Assembly: GCF_025698545.1 (NCBI RefSeq)
Contig: NC_068575.1
Span: 57,917,980 to 57,981,979, forward strand
DNA from: Gossypium raimondii
Taxonomy: Eukaryota; Streptophyta; Magnoliopsida; Malvales; Malvaceae
Length of the DNA: 64,000 nt
Direction of reading: 5' to 3'
Under the pieces are notes generated by a model that was not told the origin of the DNA, ran no database searches, and saw nothing but the letters and a program-made list of their open reading frames with translations. The translations under genes were made by a program, and so were the position numbers. Numbering within the stretch: position 1 is the first letter of the stretch; every line of letters begins with the position of its first letter. Below are positions 22,445 to 44,643 of this stretch, one piece after another.

Positions 22445-22800
22445 GGGTTTTTTTATTAATATAGGTTAAAAAAAGTTTACGAAAATAGTACATTTTTTGT
22501 ATTGGCGTCTATCTCAGAGGCGCCAATAAATTAAAAAATATTAATTTTTTTCTAATGGCGTCTATCTAATAGGCACCAATGTATATTTTATATTAAATTT
22601 TTTTAATAAAATATAATTAATTTTTTTCCCGGGTCAGTAAATGACCCGGTATAATAAAAAGTAGTGGCGCCTATCTCAGAAGCGCCAATGGTGGTGCCTA
22701 TCTGACAGGCGCCATTAATGGTGCCATGTTGAGAGGCGCCAATGGTCTTATTTTTCCCTGTATATACTCCCTAAACATAGACATAATTTTTAGTAGAGGA
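22445..22800. repeat. Left TIR of MULE copy 1
   Basis: Inverse of 26033-26420 with small indels. It includes GGCGCC units at about 22505-22550 and 22670-22745, then 'tatatactccctaaacatag' and TTTTTAGTAGAGGA. The right TIR has the matching TATATATA and leader in front of the transposase. The left TIR of copy 2 lacks this inner part and looks different beyond its GGCGCC zone. Confidence 0.8.
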
Positions 22801-22801
22801 A

Positions 22802-22846
22802 CGAAAATATACCCCTAGAACCACATCATCAAATCATCAATTTTAG
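22802..22846 (+). pseudogene. Remnant 3' end of a plant-mobile-domain gene
   Basis: The frame reads RKYTPRTTSSNHQF followed by a stop. This is the same C terminus as the PMD gene of copy 2 (QKYTPRTTPSNHQF at its end, 40784). Everything upstream of it in that gene is missing and is replaced by the TIR/leader. So copy 1 descends from an element that had the PMD gene. Confidence 0.75.
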
Positions 22847-23102
22847 GGGGTTTTGTAATATAAACAACCTCGTATTTTTATAATGAATTTTGTTGACATT
22901 TTATTTATCAGATTGATATAATTTTTTTTGCGTTTGCAATTTAAATAGTCAACTGTGTATTTATATAATGACTTTTTGCCTTTTATGTAAATAAAATTTT
23001 ATGGTTTTTTTTTTATTTTGCAATTTCAAATTGCTCCATAACTGCAACAAATTGTAGACAAATTTGTGATTCAAACCATCAATTTATGTAATGAACTACA
23101 TA

Positions 23103-25781
23103 TCAATTTCTACCCGATTGAGACGATTGTCCAACATGGTAGTTTCGGAGCGGGCATTTACTCCGATTATGACCGGTTAATCTGCATACGCCATACAGCT
23201 TCCCCTCAGATTTCTCCCTAATGTCCATTTCGTTATGGATTCTGGATGATTGCGGACGACCTTTCGAGTTCCTACGCAACCTTTTGTCTAGGACAAACTC
23301 GAAGGTCGACAAAGGTACCTCCCAAGTAGATAGGTCAGGAAGCACGGGGAACTTGTTTTCCCATACACGCAACGTGAGTTCGATGGTGTACACTTCATCG
23401 ATAAATTGTTCTACATTGAGCCCAACTTTAGCACAAGCTGCCATGACATGTGTACATGGATAATGAAGTGTTTGAAACCTCTTGCAGTCGCACCGTCTGT
23501 TTCGGAGATCAACTCCGTAGGACCTAGGTGATATACCGGGTCGACGACCGATGGTTTCTGTAACTCGAAACGTTTCATTATGTCGTGAATATACTTCTAC
23601 TGTCATCGACCTTGCCATCCGACGGTTTGCAACCATTGCATCCCTAACATCTTTGACAAAGACGTGTCCCGCCTCCATCTGGTTCACTTGTTGCTGACCC
23701 ATTCTTGGCATCAAGGTAGCCAACCTGTAGAACGTAGCCGAGAAGACAGATGAAATTGGAAGATGCCGTGTTTTTAATAACACAGTGTTGATCCCCTCCA
23801 CCAAGTTTGTGGTCATTTGACCATAACAAAAGCCCTCGTCAAAACTTTGAGCCCATTGCCACTGCTCCATGGTACCCAACCACTGCTGGAAAGATGTGTT
23901 GGTTTGACCTTCCATGTCACTCTCAAGTTGGGCCATTCTTTGGCGAAAAATGTGTGGCTCTAGCTCACGCGCTGCATATGTATTAAGAAAATTTAAGTTA
24001 CAGTATTGCTCTAAAATATTTTACCTTATATTGAAAAGATAAGGTAATTCTTTACCTATTCTCACAACTTGTCTCTTCCAGTCTACATTCTTATAATCTC
24101 GCTAGAAGTTAGTCGCAATGTGCCGGATGCAGTAAACAGATCTTCATGGTGTACTGGAACGCCTAATGGCTGCAATTAATCATTTCCCTCTATTGGAGAT
24201 GATGCAAATATTATCGTTGCTAATAACATACATTCGCAAGTTGGTAAGGAAGAACTCTCGTGATTCTATGTTCTCCTTATTGACGATGGCAAATGCTATC
24301 GGGAGCACGTTCCTGTTGCCGTCTTGAGCAACCGCAAGAAGTAGGATTTGTCTGTATTTTTTATATAGCCAGGTTCCATCTACTTGCACAAACGATTTGC
24401 AGTGGGGAAATGTGCGCACACATTGATAAAACGTCCAGAACATCCGATGGAAAATTTTTTTTCTCGATTGTAGTTGGTCATCCGGCCCATAATAAGATTG
24501 TGTCTACAACTCAATTACAGTCCCCGGCACGTGTTCCCTCATAGCGGCTATCCATCCCTGTAACTCATTGTACGATGTATCGAAATCTCTGTACAATTGC
24601 TCCATTGCCATCTGTTTAGCTATCCATGCCTTCTGGTATGATACTCGATACTGGAATCGTACTTGTATTTCGACAATCAGTACTGAAACTTTAATGGTCG
24701 GCATGTCTTTCACCATTGACATGATGCACGCACAGATAGTTTTGGAGTCAAGTTTTCGATGATCTTCTGTCATACGTGTTGAAATGCATGTGTGAGGCCC
24801 AACCAATTTTTGTATCTCCCACATCTGCAACTTCTGGATAAATGCAGCTTGTATCCGCCAATTGCAGCCTTCTGCCGACCTCCAACACTCTCCAATATAT
24901 AATGTTGGTTTAGACACGATGACTTTGTAATCTACTGATATATTCATGCTATACCACTTAATGGCAAATATGCATTCTTCCTTACTTTCAAATCTCTGGC
25001 CCACGAACAACTCATCTAGATCAAAATATACGGCCATTCGGTTAGCAGTTAGTATTTCAGGGTACTCCGAAAACTTGGTTGCCCGTGCCGTATCGGGGTC
25101 TATCCGAGACATGTGTGCCTCAGGATTATTGTGTATCACAATACGACGAATCTGGTTTCCGACTGAAGACGCGTTAACGTTTCTATCCTCATTCACGCCT
25201 TCGTCGTCAATATCATCAGGGACCTCGTCCACGTCAGGATCACTCTCACTATCAACTTCGTAATCAACAGGATCACTACTATAGTATACATCATCACCAA
25301 CCACATCAGTCTCGGCTGCAGCATTAAAATCAATATCAATCCCGTGTATAGTTGATTGACTATCAACATATGATACCGGAACCACCATACACGGCGCTTG
25401 AACTCTATCTTCTTCACCTAATGGAGTGGGATCTTCAGTTGCCTCCACATCGGTTAACTCAGCAAATAACTGAATCGGTGCATTTTGGTTGCTCTGAGTC
25501 CCACAATAAAGAGCGACCATTGTCTCCACGTCTTCATCGTTTACAAGTTCCATTTCGGTAAATTTTATTGGATCTGCCGAAACTGGAAACTTGTAGAAAA
25601 ATTTTGATATCCTTCTCCCACAACGTCTATAAATTTGTTCACTAAGTTTTTCCTTCATATCATCAAACGAGATATTTCTATTAAATCTCATTGCTACTTG
25701 TTTTCGACATTCAAATATACATCCCACGGTTGTCAAAATTTCCCCATCGAAATAAACGCATACAAAAAATTGATTCTCCAT
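23103..25781 (-). pseudogene. Decayed MULE transposase (copy 1)
   Basis: Mutator-family transposase for cut-and-paste or replicative transposition in the nucleus. It starts MENQFFVCVYFDGEI, with an N-terminal PB1/MuDR-like part, an acidic stretch (SESDPDVDEVPDDIDDEG), the MuDR zinc-like domain (ECWRSAEGCNWRIQAAF), the MULE DDE core with FVQVDGTWLYKKY (first Asp), and a C-terminal SWIM zinc finger (CDCKRFQTLHYPCTHV). Compared with copy 2 there is a stop where copy 2 reads Gln (about 24504, after GTVIEL), and an indel after IISNRGK (about 24180). The second catalytic Asp is Asn here (SNRG against SDRG in copy 2). An intron of about 80 bp near 23972-24055 matches one in copy 2. The changes look like C-to-T decay of methylated DNA. 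Confidence 0.88.
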
Positions 25782-26032
25782 CTTCAATACTAGATCTGTT
25801 AAAAAAAATTTAAATTTCTTAAAGCATTTTCGAAATGTAAAAATTACATAAAATTTTAATGCAAAATTTTTCATTCGAAGTTAACAAAATTAATAACCTA
25901 ACAAAATAACTTTCAAATAATAAAATTACTAATAAGACTCTACATTATATTTAAAAAGAAATAAACTAAAATACCTTATCCTTCTTCTTCTTTTCCTTTC
26001 TTTTTTTCTTCTCCCTTCCTTCTTATTTCCAT

Positions 26033-26420
26033 TCCTCTACTAAAAATTATGTCTGTGTTTCGAGGGTATATATAGGGAAAAATAAGACCATTGACACTTC
26101 TCAATATGGCACCACTAATGGCGCCTGTCAGATAGGCACCACCATTGGCACCTCTAAGATAGACGCCACTACTTTGTATTATATCGGGTCATTTACTAAC
26201 TCGAGAAAAAATTAATTATATTTTATTAAAAAAATTTAATATAAAATATACATTGACACCTATTAGATAGGCGACATTAGAAAAAAAAATTTAATATTTT
26301 TTAATTCATTAGTGCCTCTGAGATAGGCGCCAATACAAAAAATATACCATTTTCGTAAATAATCTTTCTGACGACCTATTTTAGTACTAAATTTTTTAAA
26401 CCTATATTAGTAAAAAACCC
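26033..26420. repeat. Right TIR of MULE copy 1, with transposase promoter
   Basis: Read on the minus strand it starts GGGTTTTTTACTAATATAGG, runs through GGCGCC units and the motif TATATATA, and ends in the transposase leader. It therefore doubles as terminal repeat and promoter of the transposase gene. Confidence 0.8.
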
Positions 26421-33258: not shown

Positions 33259-33363
33259 GTCTATCTAATAGGCTCCAATGAAAAAAAGTAATTTATTTTG
33301 GTAAATATTTTTTCTGAGACTCTATTTCAGTTTTTTTTTTTAAAGTATTTATGTAAAAAACTC
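33259..33363. repeat. Solitary terminal fragment of the same MULE family
   Basis: It reads GTCTATCTAATAGGCTCCAA, then 'tgaaaaaaagtaatttatttt', then GGTAAATATTTTTTCTGA, and ends near GTAAAAAACTC. This parallels the right terminus of MULE copy 2 (about 44125-44195) closely. No transposase sequence accompanies it, so it is a relic of a third insertion. Confidence 0.65.
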
Positions 33364-37074: not shown

Positions 37075-37562
37075 GGGTAAATTACACTCAATGTCATTAA
37101 ACTATTAATAAGTTTATGCTTTGATCACTTAATTTCAAAGAGTTGCAAAATGGGCATTGAATTATTCGATAATTTTTATTTAAGCAAATGGGTTATTAAT
37201 TTTCTTTTAAAAGAAAGTTTAGCTAGTAAGTTTCAAGTGACGATTCAACGATTGATATGATGATCAGTTCTCGTCGGCAAGTTGAAGAACATAATTTAGA
37301 TCTAATTTGATTTTACAATTAGTGTCGGAGATCGGTGAAGAAAGTTGTTTAGATTTTGGTTGACAAATTCATGACCTTCAAAACTATTTTGTGAAAAAAA
37401 AAACTTGTGGAAGAGAAAAAGAATTGGAGCTTTTAATTGGTATATGCGGTGCAAACATATAAGGCCATAAAACAACGATTTTAACAGCCCATCAACTTAA
37501 ATGAAAAATTTCAAATAGTTTAATAACAATTTTATAACTTTTTGAACTCGAGTGATCAAAAC

Positions 37563-37880
37563 GGGTTTTTTACCCAAATAATGTAGAAAAAAAATACTAA
37601 AATAGGATGTCAGAAAAAAAAATTACCAAAATAGGTTACTTTTTCATTGGAGCCTATTAGATAGGCGCCAATAAATAAAATAATAATTTTTTGAATAAAA
37701 TATAATTTTAATAATTTTTTAATATTTTTTAAAAAAAATACGGGTCAAAATATGGTTGGGTCGGGTCGGGTCAGGTGGCGCCTGTCTAGTAGGCGCCAAT
37801 GAAGGAGCCTGCTGGAGAGGCGCCAATGGTGCCTCTGCCCCCTGCATGTTGCTGCTGCTGCTGCCATTGAATTGTCCCTT
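37563..37880. repeat. Left TIR and PMD-side terminal region of MULE copy 2
   Basis: After the terminus it matches the right TIR in reverse through ATTAGATAGGCGCCAAT, then has GGCGCC units at about 37775-37830. Beyond that it diverges from the transposase-side TIR and contains a (CTG)n run and a leader-like purine tract (GAGAAGAAGAAGAAGAAG, about 37960-37985). Confidence 0.7.
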
Positions 37881-37996
37881 CATAAACCTTTTATTTTGGC
37901 TATAAGTAATAGCAAATGGTCCCAAACTCAGTCCACACGGTAGAGAAAAAAAAAGAGAGAAAGGAGAAGAAGAAGAAGAAGAAAGAAAGAAAAAAG

Positions 37997-38910
37997 GTAA
38001 TGTATTTTTTTAATAAATAATTTTGTTTATAATTTAAAAGGTTTATAGTTTGTGAATTTTTAGGATCTATTTTAGAAAATATTGTGAATTTTTGTTATTA
38101 ATTATTAATTATAAATTATCTATATTTAGTGTTTATAGTTTAGATTAGAATTTTGTATGAATATTTTAAATTTTTGTATGAATATTATATTTTTTATGAA
38201 TATTGTAATGTTGTATGGATATTGTAATTATTTTATAATTAAATTTGTATTTATAGTTTTGGATTAGTAATTTTTGTATGAATATTGTAATTTTGTATGA
38301 ATATTATAAATTTTTGTATGAATATTGTAATATTATAGTTTTGTATGAATATTGCAATTTTTTGTATGAATATTGTAATTTTGTAATTTTGTATGAATAT
38401 TGTAATACTATAATTTTGTATGAATATTGCAATTTTTTGTATGAATATTGTAATATTGTAATTTTCTATGAATATTGTAATGTGGGGATATATTGTAATA
38501 TTGTAATTTTTGTATGAATATTGTAATTATTTTATAATTAATTTGTTAGTAATTTGGGAAAAATTCACAATATTTTGTGTTTGTAATTATTTAAAATTTA
38601 ATTTATTAGTAATTTATGATTAAGCTATAAGTTGTTGTGTTTAGTTTAGTATTTGGTGAGTTTAATATATAAAGTTTATAAAAAAATTAAAAATCATTTC
38701 ATTAAAAGTTTAATTATAAAAAATTAAAAATCATTTTATTAAAAGTTTAATTATAACTGACTTTTTAATCATATAGTTGTTGTTAACTCATTTAATTTTT
38801 ATATAATGTAACTTTTATATAATTAAATTTTATTTGATTTTGTATTTATTTAACAAGAATTATTGATTTTTGAAACAAATTAATCAATTCATTTTTTATT
38901 GCAGATTTGC
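37997..38910 (+). other. Presumed 5' UTR intron of the PMD gene
   Basis: A purine-rich leader ends ...AAAAAAG at 37996 followed by GTAATG, and a good acceptor (TTTTTTATTGCAG) lies at about 38904, 11 bp before the PMD ATG. The enclosed 0.9 kb is AT-rich and includes a minisatellite. This is a splice inference only. Confidence 0.45.
38150..38530. repeat. AT-rich minisatellite (TATGAATATTGTAAT)n
   Basis: Degenerate tandem copies of a word close to TTGTATGAATATTGTAATTT, more than a dozen times over about 380 bp. They make a spurious open frame (38278-38517, repeated YEYCN). It lies in the presumed first intron of the PMD gene and is absent from MULE copy 1. Confidence 0.8.
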
Positions 38911-38914
38911 AGAA

Positions 38915-40784
38915 ATGGGTTCTCTAATTATTAATAATAATCACATATCAAGTACTATTAATGAGATGGTAATAAAATTTATTTTTGATATTCATGTTAT
39001 TTGTTTAATTAAATTATATTGTATTAACTATTTTGCTAATTTAATAATGTCAGAGCCCGTACCGCGCATTGAGGGGCCGTGTTAATAGTGTAGGGTTTCA
39101 GCCAGATGAACGCCTAATACCATACTTAGAGTTAGCCGGGTTCGGATCAGCGGCATTGATTCGGACTTTTGATCTGCGATACGACTTGATTTCCGCTTTA
39201 GTTGAGCGATGGCGTCCGGAGACCCACACATTTCATCTGCCGTGCGGAGAGTGTACCGTCACTCTAGAGGATGTTGCAGTACAACTTGGGCTTCCCATAG
39301 ACGGGAATGCGGTCACGGGCGTAAGTTCAATCTCTAGGCCGGCTACCCTTTGCAATGAATTACTTGGACGCTTGCCAAGTCAGGGGAAATTTACCAGTTT
39401 GAGATTTTCATGGCTACATGCCAATTTTGAGCATTTGCCAAGTACTGCTAATGAACGGGAGGTGATGCAGGCTGTTCGAGCTTACATCATGCACCTTATA
39501 GGAGGTGTACTCATGCTGGATGCAAACGGCAGTAAGGTCCACTTGATGTACTTACTCTTATTATCCAATTTGCATAACACTCGTTCATACAGTTGGGGGT
39601 CCGCAGTTTTAGCCATGCTGTATCGCGAACTTTGTCGGACAACAAATCCTTCTGCGATTGACATAGGCGGATGCCTCATACTGCTGCAGTCGTGGGCACT
39701 TTACCGGATGCCATTCTTTGCATCCATTAGTCATCAATCATATGTATTTCCACTCGTTAATAGGTGATGAATTTTTCATCATTATAATAATTAGTTGACT
39801 TTTTTATAATATATTATTCTAACAATTTGTTTTCGTAGGTGGAGTACTAATCCGGGTATCGAGAAGTCACCGTCTGTTCTGATATATCGTCTAATGATTG
39901 AGAATCATGCTGGAGAGGGGGTAAGTTTTTCGAATATAAACCTAATTTTATTATTTTATCTCACTCGACCCGCGTTAATATAACAACGTTATTAATTGTG
40001 CAGTTCATTTGGATGTCGTATTCTGCTCCAGAAATTATGGCAGTTATGCCATCATCTGCCCGCGTCCACTCAAACCTATGGTGCATTAGCGCACCCGTTA
40101 TCAATTTTAACGTAGTGGAGTGGTATCATGGCAATCGAGTACTCCGGTAGTTCGGTTGCATACAGTATATCCTGACACTGCCAGTACAATTGGGGGAGAT
40201 CCATGGGATGAGCAAGAAGGGGAGGTATGGAGATAATTGGGAAGAAGTGCACGAAGAATATATCACGATATGGAACAACCGGTTCGGGAGGGTACCTCAG
40301 ATGGATCGTGCTCCGGATTTGCAACCCTCGTTAGAGTATATAAAGTGGTACTGTGAGACAGGGAAACCATTTCTGTTTGGTGGGCGGTCGATTGTAGTCC
40401 CTCCGCATACGACACGAATTACGCAACCCCTTCGACATCTGCATCATGCACAAGAGCGAGCGAGCGAGCGAGCGAGCGAGCGAGCCGAGCGAACTACATT
40501 CTAGGGATAGTTCTTATCATCCAGAATTAGGGGGCGATGACTATTTCGTGGCTTCGTATCCACCTCAGTACTCCGCTCCTTCCGGCTAATATCTGCCGTC
40601 GTATTCCTCTCCTCCCAGATCAAGTTTATCGATGGCATTTGAGACATATGATTATTCATCTATGTTTCACACACCCCAACATACTGTTGAGGAGAATGTT
40701 GATAACCGTAATCGCCCACAACGTGAGCGTCGAGCTCCACAAAAATATACCCCTAGAACCACACCATCAAACCATCAATTTTAG
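38915..40784 (+). pseudogene. Plant mobile domain (PMD) gene carried by the MULE
   Basis: Member of the PMD family (aminotransferase-like plant mobile domain; host relatives are MAIN and MAIL1). Its role in transposons is unknown. Exons: 38915-38968 (MGSLIINNNHISSTINEM), 39054-39763, 39839-39920 and 40004-40784, with GT-AG borders. Exon 2 holds the PMD core: YRALRGRVNSVGFQPDERLI, ALVERWRPETHTFHLPCGEC, TVTLEDVAVQLGLPIDG and a long helical part. Exon 3 reads RWSTNPGIEKSPSVLIYRLM. In exon 4 an in-frame TAG lies at 40148-40150 (in VLR-stop-FGC), and a (GAGC)8 run at 40454-40485 shifts the frame near the end. Beyond it the other frame carries SSYHPELGGDDYFVASYPP, one more stop, and the C terminus RRAPQKYTPRTTPSNHQF. 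So it is a recent pseudogene with few lesions. Confidence 0.85.
40454..40485. repeat. (GAGC)8 microsatellite in the PMD gene
   Basis: Eight perfect GAGC units inside the last PMD exon, translated as repeated ERAS. Being a 4-bp unit, a change in number shifts the frame; the downstream conserved part is indeed in another frame. Confidence 0.9.
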
Positions 40785-40932
40785 GGGTTTTTGTAATAAA
40801 CAACCATTATCAATTTATGTAATGATAGTTCTTATCTAAATAAAATTACAATGGTTTAAAAATGTCTCCATAACTGCAACAAATTTTAGACAATTTTGTG
40901 ATTCAAACCATATTTATGTAATGAAGTACATA

Positions 40933-43597
40933 TCAATTTCTACTCGATTGTCCAACATGGTAGTTTCGGAGAGGGCATTTACTCCGATTATGACCGGGTA
41001 ATCTGCATACGCCACACAAATTCCCGTCAGATTTCTCCCTAATGTCCATTTCGTTATGGATTCTGGATGATTACGGACGACCTTTCAGGTTTCTACGCAA
41101 CCTTATGTCTGGGACTAGCTCGAAGGTCGTCGGAGGTACTTCCCAAGTAGATAGGTCAGGAAGCACGGGGAACTCGTTTTCCCATGCACGCAACATGAGT
41201 TCGATGGTGTACACTTCATCGATAAATTGTTCTACATTGAGCCCAACTTTAGCACAAGCTGCCACGACGTGTGCACATGGAAAATGAAGTGTTTGAAACC
41301 TTCTGCAATCGCACCGTCTATTTCTGAGATCAACTCCGTAGGACCTAGGTGGTATACTGGGTCGACGACCGATGGTCTCTGTAACTTGAAACGTTTCATT
41401 ATGTCGTGAATATACTTCTACTGTCATCGACCTCGCCATTCGACGGTTTACAACCATTGCATCCCTAATGCCTTTGACAAAGACATGTCCCGCCTCCATC
41501 TGGTTCACTTGTTGCTGACCCATTCTTGGCATCAATGTAGCCAACCTGTAGAACGTTGCCGAGAAGACAGATGAAATTAAAAGATGTCGTGTTTTTAATA
41601 ACACAGCGTTGATCCCCTCCACTAAGTTTGTAGTCATTTGATCATAATGAAAGCCCTCGTCAAAACTTTAAGCTCATTGCCACAGCTCTATAGTACCCAA
41701 CCACTGCCGAAAAGATGTGTTGGTTTGACCCTCCATGTCACTCTCAAGCTGTGCCATTCTTTGGCGAAAAATGTGTGGCTCTAGCTCGTACGCTGCATAT
41801 GTATTAAAAAAAATTTAAGTTACAGTATTGCTCCAAAACATTAAAACTTATATTCAAAAGATAAGGTAATTCTTTACCCATTCTCACAACTTGTCTCTTC
41901 CAGTCTGCATTCTTATAATCTCGCTGGAAGTTAGCCGCGATGTGCCAGATGCAGTAAACAGATCGCCATGGTACACCAGAACGCCTAATGGCTGCAATTA
42001 ATACTTTTCCTCTATCGGAAATGATGCAAATATTATCATTGCTAATCACATACCTCCGCAGGTTGGTAAGAAAGAACTCCCACGATTCTATGTTCTCCTT
42101 ATCGACGATGACAAATGCTATCGGGAGTACGTTCCTATTGCCGTCTTGAGCAACCGCAAGAAGTAAGATCTGTGTGTATTTTCCATATAGCCAGGTTCCA
42201 TCTACTTGCACAAATGGTTTGCAGTGGGGAAATGCGCGCACACATTGATCAAATGTCCAGAACATCCGATGGAAAATTCTTTTTCTTAATTGTAGTTGGT
42301 CATTTGTTCCGTTATAAGATCGTGTCTGTAACTCAATTACAGTCTCCGGTACGTGTTCCCTCATGGCGGCTATCCATCCCTGTAATTCATTGTACGATGC
42401 ATCGAAATCTCCGTACAATTGCTCCATTGCCATCTGTTTAGCTATCCATGCCTTTCGGTATGATACTCGATACTGAAATCGTACTTGTATTTCAGCAATC
42501 AGTACCGAAACTTTAATGGTCGGCATGTCTTTCACCATTGGTATGATGCATGTACAGATAGTTTTGGAGTCAAGTTTTCGATGATCTTCTGTCATACGTG
42601 TTGAAGTGCATGTGTAGGGCCCAACAAATTTTCGTATTTCACACATCTGCGACTTCTGCATAAATGCAGCTCGTACCCGCCAATTGCAGCCTTCTGCCGA
42701 CCTCCAACATTCTCCAATATATAATGTTGGTTTAGACTCGATGACTTTGTAATCTACTGATATATTCATGTTATACCGCTTAATCGCAAACATACATTCT
42801 TCCTTACTTTCAAATCTCTGGCCCACGCGTAACTCATCTGGATCAGAATATACGCCCATTCGGTAAGCATGTGGTATTTCGTGGTACTCAAAACTCACCG
42901 CCTGTGCAGACGGGATCTATCGAGACATGTGTGCCCCAGGATTATTGTGTATCACAATACGACGAATCTGGTTTCCGACTGAAGACGCATTAACATTTCC
43001 ATCCTCATTCACCCCTTCGTTGTCAATATCATCCGGGACCTCGTCTGCGTCGGGATCACTCTCACTATCCACTTCGTAATCAACAGGATCATTACTATAG
43101 TATACATCATCACCAACCACATCAGTCTCAGCTGCAGCATTAAGATCAATATTTATCCCATGTATAGGTGATTGACTATCAACATACGATACCGGAACCA
43201 CCATACACGGCGCTTCAACTCCATCTTCTTCACCTAATGGAGTGGGATCTTCAGTTGCCTCCACACTAGCTAACTCAGCAAATAACTGAATCAGTACATT
43301 TTTGTTACTCGAAGTCCCACAATAAAGAGCGACCATTGTTTCCACGTCTTCATCGTCTACAAGTTCCATTTCGGTAAATTTTATTGGATCTGTTGATACT
43401 GGAAACTTGTAGAAAACTTTTGATATCCTTCTCCCACAACGTCTATAAATTTTTTCACTAATTTTTCCTTCATATCATCAAACAAGATATTTTTATCAAA
43501 TCTCATTGCTACTTGTTTGCGACATTCAAATATACATCCCACAGTTATTGTTAAAATTTCTCCATCGAAATAAACGCATACAAAAACCGATTCTCCA
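40933..43597 (-). pseudogene. Decayed MULE transposase (copy 2)
   Basis: Same gene as in copy 1. N terminus MENGESVFVCVYFDGEIL; acidic region (SESDPDADEVPDDIDNEG); MuDR domain ECWRSAEGCNWRVRAAFMQK; DDE core with PFVQVDGTWLYGKY and IISDRGK (both Asp kept), then WRSVYCIWHIAANFQRDYKN; an intron at about 41796-41880; SWIM finger CDCRRFQTLHFPCAHV. Lesions: frame breaks near 43370 and 42900-42915, stops in the WQWAQSFDEG region (about 41660-41690), and CAA-to-TAA after NLKGRP (about 41068). There is also a 9-bp in-frame deletion relative to copy 1 near the C terminus. More of the catalytic core is intact here than in copy 1. Confidence 0.88.
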
Positions 43598-43910
43598 TTT
43601 TCAATACTAGATCTCAGAAAAAAGAATTTCAAATTTCTTAAAACAGTTTCAAAATGTAAACAAAATACATAAAATTTTAATGCAAAATTTTTCATTCAAG
43701 CTAACAAAATTAATAACATGACAAAATAACTTTCAAATAATAAAATTACTAACAAGACTCTACATTCTATTTTAAAAAAAAAACCAAAATACCTAATTTT
43801 TTTCTTCTTTTCCTTCCTTCTTTTCTTCTGCTTCCTTCCTTCTTCTTTCTTCCGTTTCTGTAGTCAAATTTATGTTTGTGTTGGGGGTATTTATAGAGAA
43901 AAATCACAGC

Positions 43911-44044
43911 ATTGGCGCCTTTCAGTATGGCACCACCATTGGCGCCTCCCAGATAGGCACCACCATTGGCGCCTCCCAGATAGGCACCACCATTGGCGCC
44001 TCCCAAATAGGCACCACCATTGGCGCCTTCCAGATAGGCGCCAA
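43911..44044. repeat. 27-bp tandem array in the right TIR of MULE copy 2
   Basis: Five units of ATTGGCGCCTCCCAGATAGG plus CACCACC, with few differences between units; the last ends GGCGCCAAT. Each unit has the palindrome GGCGCC and a near-inverse AGGC(A/G)CC half. Copy 1 has fewer and more diverged units at the same place (about 26093-26180). It lies just upstream of the transposase TATA-like element and leader. Confidence 0.85.
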
Positions 44045-44248
44045 TACTATGTATTATACGGGTTATATACTAACCCGAAAAAGTATAAAATTATATTTTA
44101 TTCAAAAAAAATATTATTATTTTATTCATTGACGCCTATCTAATAGGCTCCAATGAAAAAGTAACTTATTTTGGTAAATTTTTTTCTGACATACTATTTC
44201 AAAACACAAACTTACTAATAGTTTAGTGACCTTAAGTGTAGTTTACCA

Positions 44249-44294: not shown

Positions 44295-44643
44295 GGTAAA
44301 AAGACCTCTCCAATCCCTCTCAATTTTGATATTGAGCAAATTGGTCCATCTAAAAATTTTTGAGCAATTTTATCCCTTTCAATTTTGAAAGTGAGCAATT
44401 AAGGACAATTAGTCTCAACATTAATGTTTTTCGTCAATTGTATGTAATTTTGATTGGTATAATAACAAATTTAGCTCTTAAAGTCTAGAGATTCTGTTAA
44501 TGTGGTCCCAATTTAACAAATTTAGCTTGCAAAATTTGTGTAAATGTTGAGGTTTGGAAGGGATTAAATTGCTCTGATTTTTTTGAGAAGGGGCCAATTT
44601 ACTCAATTTCAAAACTGAGAGGGACTGAAGGGGTCTTTTTACC
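44295..44643. mobile_element. Mutator-type MITE upstream of GAPC
   Basis: A 349-bp gene-less element. The left end reads GGTAAAAAGACCTCTCCAAT and the right end inverted reads GGTAAAAAGACCCCTTCAGT; the match continues ('ccctctca(a/g)ttttga') for about 55 bp. Flanks TACTATTTT (44286-44294) and TATTATTTT (44644-44652) agree at 8 of 9 positions, fitting a 9-bp Mutator duplication. It ends about 240 bp before the GAPC start codon. Confidence 0.78.

What the first reader, a model, noticed from the sequence alone, without database searches (positions are those of the whole stretch)
37563..44196. Two-gene Mutator element: a plant-mobile-domain gene convergent with a transposase gene
Seen directly: within one pair of GGGTTTTTTA ends lie a spliced PMD gene on plus (38915-40784) and a MULE transposase on minus (40933-43597), with stops about 150 bp apart. 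MULE copy 1 keeps the tail of the same PMD gene in the same place, so the pairing is a property of the family and not a single capture. Known: PMD proteins occur both as host silencing factors (MAIN/MAIL1) and in plant transposons. Inference: the PMD protein is an accessory factor (DNA binding, anti-silencing or transposition helper) co-inherited with the transposase, comparable to mudrB or VANC beside mudrA or VANA.
Basis: partly seen in the sequence, partly recalled or inferred. Interest (0 to 1): 0.75.

Follow-up and report, generated by a model that had tools for sequence, protein, structure and literature searches.

The report
Mutator transposon with convergent PMD gene
This is a decayed copy of a large plant jumping-gene family that carries, beside its transposase, a second gene related to plant silencing proteins; the layout was already on record, but the second gene turns out to have been kept working by selection while the family spread.

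Summary
The finding is real. The window holds a degenerate MuDR-type MULE (37563-44198) with a four-exon PMD gene (+) facing a SWIM/CCHC transposase gene (-). Its right terminus is missing (about 35 bp), so it does not lie between two GGGTTTTTTA ends, and both genes carry stops. Siblings with both ends have 9-bp target duplications. The convergent pairing is a family property: 31 of 32 listed PMD/transposase pairs and, in a divergent family, 49 of 51, against 0.5-0.7 pairs expected by chance. On internal tree branches PMD shows purifying selection (missense 0.46 and nonsense 0.23 of the neutral expectation); on terminal branches it is near neutral (0.90, 0.80). The transposase behaves alike. 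So PMD is a maintained element gene, not a passenger. The two genes are not strictly co-inherited: between subfamilies PMD synonymous divergence is twice that of the transposase, suggesting cassette exchange. The architecture is in print: Dupeyron 2019 Table 1 gives 'PMD in antisense for most' of its MUDR group, and Ikeda 2017 proposed capture and anti-silencing. New leads: the selection test, the exchange signal, and a weak but recurrent match of these PMDs to DUF1985, a domain of VANC anti-silencing proteins. Function remains inference.

The parts
37563..44198 (.). degenerate MULE copy; left terminus GGGTTTTTTACCC at 37563, right terminus truncated
37615..37692 (+). left TIR core, 94% complementary to 44108-44185
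44108..44185 (-). right TIR core
37556..37562 (+). left side of the target duplication: TCAAAAC, also present on the right
   Evidence: uninterrupted site found 66 times in the genome with up to 3 mismatches
44199..44205 (+). right remnant of the target duplication (TCAAAAC)
38151..38528 (+). AT-rich tandem array, 21-bp unit TTTTGTATGAATATTGTAAAT, upstream of the PMD gene
38915..38968 (+). PMD gene exon 1 (18 codons)
   Evidence: read; donor kept in 7 of 7 copies
39054..39763 (+). PMD gene exon 2, PF10536 positions 1-188
39839..39920 (+). PMD gene exon 3
   Evidence: read
40004..40784 (+). PMD gene exon 4; in-frame TAG at 40148-40150 and GAGC run 40454-40492 break it in this copy
40933..41792 (-). 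transposase 3' exon: SWIM zinc finger, then a CX2CX4HX4C knuckle read by eye; stops at 41668-41670, 41674-41676 and 41071-41073
41793..41877 (-). transposase intron; donor GT in 7 of 7 and acceptor AG in 5 of 7 aligned copies
41878..43474 (-). transposase 5' part: MuDR DNA-binding domain and MULE catalytic domain; frame difference near 42917; an N-terminal stretch up to 43695 also aligns in siblings
43910..44043 (.). 27-bp GGCGCC-box tandem array near the transposase-side end, 5 copies
22445..26420 (.). copy 1 of the same family, both termini present, PMD deleted except for a 60-bp tail (22801-22860)

Best explanation
It is a dead copy of a MuDR-type MULE family whose propagating form encodes two convergently transcribed genes: a transposase and a standalone PMD protein. 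Shown: the pairing recurs in two subfamilies (A, B) and a divergent third family (C) of this genome, insertions make 9-bp target duplications, and PMD was under purifying selection in the propagating lineage (A and B tested) and decays after insertion. Inferred: the PMD protein helps the element, most likely by countering host silencing at its own noncoding DNA. That could be by acting on the tandem arrays beside the genes, as VANC proteins do in VANDAL MULEs, or by entering the host MAIN/MAIL1/PP7L pathway. PMD cassettes seem to be exchanged between subfamilies, as expected of a fast-turning arms-race module.
For: Pairing: 31 of 32 listed pairs convergent, 30 of them within 3 kb. Convergent partner at 14 of 20 sampled transposase hits (of 79 without a listed PMD) and 13 of 20 sampled PMD hits (of 118 without a listed transposase). 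Third family 49 of 51; of 150 listed PF03108 hits 25 have a listed PMD nearby and 25 of 25 are convergent. Target duplications: 5 of 5 fetched elements with both ends, one of them 8 of 9 bases. Selection. Exchange. Weak DUF1985 match: 16 of 19 at E up to 1, best 9e-5; 0 of 5 reversed. Element-borne array: 29 of 68 loci from the 100 listed places lie by a listed family hit against 0.4 expected. Different arrays upstream of PMD in family C.
Against: No expression, methylation or binding data. In the sampled hits without a listed partner, 6 of 20 and 7 of 20 had none at the expected place. DUF1985 scores 17.6-20.5 bits against a cut-off of 35.1 in the eight matching proteins scored singly; three genic-like PMDs do not match at all; another domain, DUF7745, also matches weakly in 2 of 19. 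The host-target DOWN motif CATGCAGTTT is absent from the window element and six siblings. Three family C copies lack the 21-bp unit; the corresponding stretch of family B was not fetched. 39 of 68 array loci were not near a listed hit. Both AlphaFold models failed, so there is no structural support.
Confidence: 0.45

Rival explanations
1. PMD is a transposition or integration helper, comparable with MURB of maize MuDR, acting on the transposition complex and not on silencing.
For: Second gene opposite a MuDR-type transposase; selection on PMD parallels selection on the transposase; mudrB is reported as needed for insertion in maize (PMC6446971 and PMC9168764, passages).
Against: Host PMD proteins act in silencing and transcription. 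PMD and transposase divergence are uncoupled between subfamilies, which is odd for tight partners in one complex.
Confidence: 0.25
2. PMD acts as a dominant-negative or competitor of the host MAIN/MAIL1/PP7L complex and so relieves silencing in general, not by binding its own element.
For: MAIN, MAIL1 and PP7L form a complex needed for silencing (PMC7156037, passages). Within this genome the window PMD is 39% identical over exon 2 to L005, a PMD copy whose nature (host or transposon) was not established.
Against: No interaction data. A broad effect would harm the host. Three genic-like PMDs (L001-L003) are only 18-22% identical to the window PMD.
Confidence: 0.15
3. PMD is a passenger: a host gene fragment captured once, Pack-MULE style, and carried along without function.
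For: MULEs capture host genes (Ikeda 2017, passages); 28 of 42 PMD exon-2 copies carry a stop.
Against: Internal-branch missense 0.46 and nonsense 0.23 of the neutral expectation against 0.90 and 0.80 on terminal branches (single run). The same layout is kept in a family with 46% identical PMD.
Confidence: 0.05

Closest known systems
MULE groups 42 and 45-50 of Dupeyron et al. 2019 (PMC6446971, Table 1), above all group 50 MUDR and group 49 MUDRAVI2
   Same: MuDR-type transposase with SWIM finger, 9-bp target duplications, TIRs, PMD in antisense to the transposase; group 50 is said to include Gossypium raimondii elements
   Different: The passages I saw give no selection test, copy statistics or test of co-inheritance; I did not place this transposase in their tree
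PMD-C / MULE fusions of grasses and Amborella (Ikeda et al. 2017, PMC5418596)
   Same: MULE transposase and PMD in one element; capture and anti-silencing role proposed there
   Different: There a fusion protein; here two genes on opposite strands
VANDAL MULEs with VANA and VANC (PMC5735166, PMC10398659)
   Same: Transposase plus an accessory gene, tandem repeats in noncoding DNA; weak similarity of PMD to DUF1985 of VANC
   Different: DUF1985 cut-off not met; clear TIRs are present here; no hypomethylation data
Maize MuDR (mudrA and mudrB)
   Same: Two-gene Mutator element with the second gene opposite to the transposase (PMC9168764 passage)
   Different: Second gene is PMD; similarity to MURB was not tested

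Membership tests
Mutator-like element (MULE) | MULE/DDE transposase domain, MuDR DNA-binding domain, SWIM finger | tested here: met
   PF10551 2.8e-17, PF03108 1.1e-9, PF04434 3.2e-7
Mutator-like element (MULE) | terminal inverted repeats | tested here: met
   94% over 78 bp; terminal ~35 bp missing on the right in the window copy, both termini in five siblings
Mutator-like element (MULE) | 8-11 bp target-site duplication | tested here: met
   9 bp in L040, L041, L043, L044; 8 of 9 in L042; copy 1 exact; L039 not testable (one end outside the fetched stretch); 7-bp remnant in the window copy with uninterrupted sites elsewhere
MUDR group 50 with antisense PMD (Dupeyron 2019) | transposase falls in that clade | not tested
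MUDR group 50 with antisense PMD (Dupeyron 2019) | PMD in antisense | tested here: met
PMD family (PF10536) | match over the curated cut-off | tested here: met
   173.8 bits against 34.9
PMD-A, PMD-B or PMD-C clade (Ikeda 2017) | position in the PMD tree | not testable with these tools
   no named plant PMD sequences to anchor clades; within this genome the MULE PMDs lie apart from L001-L004
VANC anti-silencing proteins | DUF1985 over its curated cut-off | tested here: not met
   17.6-20.5 bits against 35.1 in eight proteins; best E 9e-5 among 19
VANC anti-silencing proteins | target motif arrays in noncoding DNA of the element | tested here: inconclusive
   arrays present and element-borne; binding unknown
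VANC anti-silencing proteins | causes loss of methylation of family copies | not testable with these tools
   needs plants
Pack-MULE (non-autonomous capture) | lacks transposase and carries a host fragment | tested here: not met
   transposase gene present; PMD under selection

The most novel reading that the evidence does not exclude
PMD and the DUF1985 domain of VANC are one family of transposon-encoded chromatin factors. MULE PMDs would be sequence-directed anti-silencers acting on their own tandem arrays and swapped as cassettes between elements, and the host silencing proteins MAIN/MAIL1 would be tamed relatives of the same kind of weapon.
Probability: 0.15. Interest if true: 0.85.

Novelty: new member of a known kind. 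Interest (0 to 1): 0.45.

Why it matters
Antisense PMD genes in plant MULEs were tabulated but, in the passages I could read, not tested. The branch-wise selection result shows that the gene was maintained in the spreading lineage, so its function is worth assaying. If it counters silencing, then the same domain serves both sides: host PMD proteins that silence transposons and transposon PMD proteins that escape silencing. The exchange signal and the DUF1985 lead make that directly testable.

Tried and rejected
A single capture or passenger was rejected. Fusion with the transposase was rejected: the genes are on opposite strands. The DOWN motif was tested only as the one instance printed for the MORC1 promoter (CATGCAGTTT); it is absent from the window and six siblings, and an 8-base part of it occurs in 2 of 30 TIR loci. 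Structure prediction of the window exon and of a genic PMD gave mean pLDDT 39.7 and 39.4 and was not used; no fold search was run. No solved PMD structure was seen: three chance-level hits at E 0.6-0.9 for L007. DUF1985 in this genome: no match, with the tool's warning that nothing rang anywhere. The right-end TIR query did not complete. The 2006 paper that I recall as the first on PMD is not held under the identifier I tried. The PF10551 list was not used for pairing. Nearest-neighbour agreement of the two genes is low (7 of 30; A 2 of 16, B 4 of 13); I put this down to star-like trees with long tips and rest on the distance correlation, which is only weak in subfamily A (r 0.35, p 0.039).

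Limits on the counts: genome searches list only the best-scoring hits. The copies used for selection (42 PMD, 30 transposase) were picked from hits most similar to the window copy, which favours less damaged copies. For the A-B comparison one copy of 30 (L107) was left out. The transposase tree included some intron columns; rebuilt it without them and repeated the count over 10 resolutions with the same result. The script meant to merge very short internal branches, but still counts 40 internal branches for 42 tips, so I take it that none were merged. Parsimony undercounts synonymous changes on the saturated A-B branch, which makes the internal estimate conservative.
Full report
What is in the window. 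The stretch 37563-44198 is a Mutator-like element. Its left end is GGGTTTTTTACCC; family copies elsewhere in the genome begin at or within about two bases of the same place with unrelated flanks (plus-strand loci). The inner TIRs match at 94% over 78 bp (37615-37692 and 44108-44185). The right end lacks its last ~35 bp: no such terminus is found there (a 3-edit match at 44307 belongs to another inverted repeat). The element sits in a small dispersed repeat. A 37-base pattern that joins its two flanks occurs 34+32 times in the genome with up to 3 mismatches, none of them exact, against 0 for the backward control, and a 7-bp TCAAAAC remains on both sides of the element. I read this as a true insertion whose right tip was later lost.

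The two genes. On the plus strand a four-exon gene encodes a Plant Mobile Domain protein (PF10536, E 7.5e-51). The exon borders are mine; the splice dinucleotides are kept in 7 of 7 aligned copies at four of the six sites and in 6 of 7 at the exon-2 and exon-4 acceptors. On the minus strand lies a transposase gene with PF03108, PF10551 and PF04434, one intron (donor 7 of 7, acceptor 5 of 7), and a CX2CX4HX4C knuckle near the end that I read by eye. Both genes are broken in this copy. At the PMD exon-4 stop 6 of 6 siblings have a sense codon.

Family property. Protein searches of the whole 750.8-Mb genome listed 150 PMD and 111 transposase hits; 32 pairs lie within 12 kb, against 0.5 expected, and 31 of 32 are convergent, 30 of these within 3 kb. 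The lists hold only the best hits, so I sampled those without a listed partner. A convergent PMD sits at the expected place in 14 of 20 of the 79 unpaired transposase hits (two of the 14 are partial), and a convergent transposase in 13 of 20 of the 118 unpaired PMD hits. One fixed stretch per hit was inspected, so the 6 and 7 misses include partners placed elsewhere as well as true losses. Taken together this points to roughly three quarters of listed genes having the partner. Six elements were fetched whole or nearly so; five were chosen because they were listed pairs, and the sixth (L040), chosen without a listed transposase, also has one. The five with both ends in the fetched stretch show target duplications: four exact 9-mers and one with 8 of 9 bases. 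A more distant family C (PMD 46% identical to the window copy) repeats the layout: 49 of 51 list pairs are convergent, and the other two are cross-pairs of two neighbouring elements. Its facing frame is a MuDR transposase, since 31 of 150 such frames are followed at 454-495 bp on the same strand by a listed PF03108 hit. Of 150 listed PF03108 hits, 25 have a listed PMD within 9 kb and all 25 are convergent; the other 125 have no listed PMD.

Selection. I aligned PMD exon 2 of 42 copies and the transposase core of 30 copies (subfamilies A and B) and counted changes by parsimony (alignments and trees; searches counts). Against an expectation from the observed mutation spectrum including CpG sites, mean of 10 resolutions, internal branches show missense 0.46 and nonsense 0.23 for PMD, and 0.33 and 0.11 for the transposase. 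Terminal branches show 0.90 and 0.80 for PMD, and 0.94 and 1.08 for the transposase. The internal-terminal contrast has Fisher p 2e-7 (PMD) and 2e-17 (transposase) with plain site counts. Both genes were therefore maintained in the lineage that spread and decay after insertion; PMD is somewhat less constrained. Between A and B the pairwise dN/dS is 0.16 for PMD and 0.18 for the transposase. The copies were chosen from the best-scoring hits, a bias towards better preserved ones that should affect tips more than internal branches.

Not a rigid unit. Between subfamilies A (16 copies) and B (13 copies; one intermediate copy left out) PMD has dN 0.237 and dS 1.46, the transposase dN 0.118 and dS 0.66, whereas within subfamilies the two genes have similar dS (A 0.137 and 0.178; B 0.245 and 0.205). 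PMD exon 4 is at least as diverged as exon 2 (44 and 41 of 78 pairs saturated in its two parts), while the transposase end next to it has dS 0.74 (6 pairs, one B element). The simplest reading is that one subfamily received its PMD from another lineage, with the switch between the two gene ends. Gene distances still correlate (Mantel r 0.92 overall, 0.78 in B with p 0.0002, 0.35 in A with p 0.039), but the nearest neighbour is the same in both genes for only 7 of 30 copies.

Function. Host PMD proteins MAIN and MAIL1 act with PP7L in transposon silencing and gene expression (PMC7156037 and PMC9899485, passages). Ikeda et al. (PMC5418596, passages) proposed that MULE-borne PMD serves anti-silencing. 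Two observations of mine point the same way but are weak. First, MULE-type PMDs match DUF1985 below its cut-off in a constant place (PMD residues about 134-198 against DUF1985 74-140): 16 of 19 alignment members at E up to 1, best 9e-5 (DUF7745 2 of 19, four other families 1 each); and 7 of 10 proteins at E 0.0005-0.0031, where the three misses are the genic-like L001-L003. L005, of unknown nature, matches too. 0 of 5 reversed sequences match anything. DUF1985 is marked as a domain of VANC in a figure legend of PMC5735166, and no held paper has both 'DUF1985' and 'plant mobile domain'. Second, the element carries noncoding tandem arrays: a 21-bp AT-rich array upstream of PMD (13.9, 15.1 and 7.0 copies in the window copy, L041 and L043) and a 27-bp GGCGCC array by the transposase end (unit counts in six siblings). 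VANC targets are tandem repeats in noncoding DNA (PMC5735166, PMC10398659, passages). The 35-base array pattern occurs 289 times with up to 2 mismatches against 0 for the control; of 68 loci among the 100 places I used from the list, 29 lie by a listed family hit against 0.4 expected, and 39 do not. Three family C copies lack this unit, and the two run through the repeat finder have different arrays upstream of PMD.

Known or new. Dupeyron et al. 2019 (PMC6446971; outline and passages including Table 1 rows) list PMD for several plant MULE groups, 'often antisense' in group 49 and 'in antisense for most of them' in group 50, which includes a diploid cotton. So the architecture is known and this is a new member. 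My searches of the held library, of which I saw listings and passages, showed no test of selection or co-inheritance for MULE PMD genes; most subscription papers are not in that library and no preprints are held.

Noticed in passing
37076-37124, 37481-37562 and 44199-44247: The element is inserted in a small repeat with GGTAAATTACAC-type ends; the uninterrupted site occurs 66 times in the genome with 1 to 3 mismatches.
   Followed up: partly
33261-33363: A lone terminus of the same TIR family (about 100 bp, 84%); no partner end was looked for further.
   Followed up: no
L040 (both ends), also C4:45870448/45876133 and C3:61405977/61411757 in the genome: Some family members carry the 21-bp array near both ends in opposite orientation, as if the PMD-side noncoding DNA had been copied to the transposase side.
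   Followed up: no
40454-40492 and siblings: A GAGC or AGAGCC run in PMD exon 4 varies in length and sequence among copies; in VANC proteins variable regions also hold tandem peptide repeats (PMC5735166).
   Followed up: partly
44884 onwards: A gene resembling glyceraldehyde-3-phosphate dehydrogenase starts about 700 bp right of the element (recognised by eye, not searched).
   Followed up: no
L001-L003: Three long intact single-frame PMD proteins (651-887 aa frames), apparently host-type genes, which do not match DUF1985 and are only 18-22% identical to the window PMD.
   Followed up: partly
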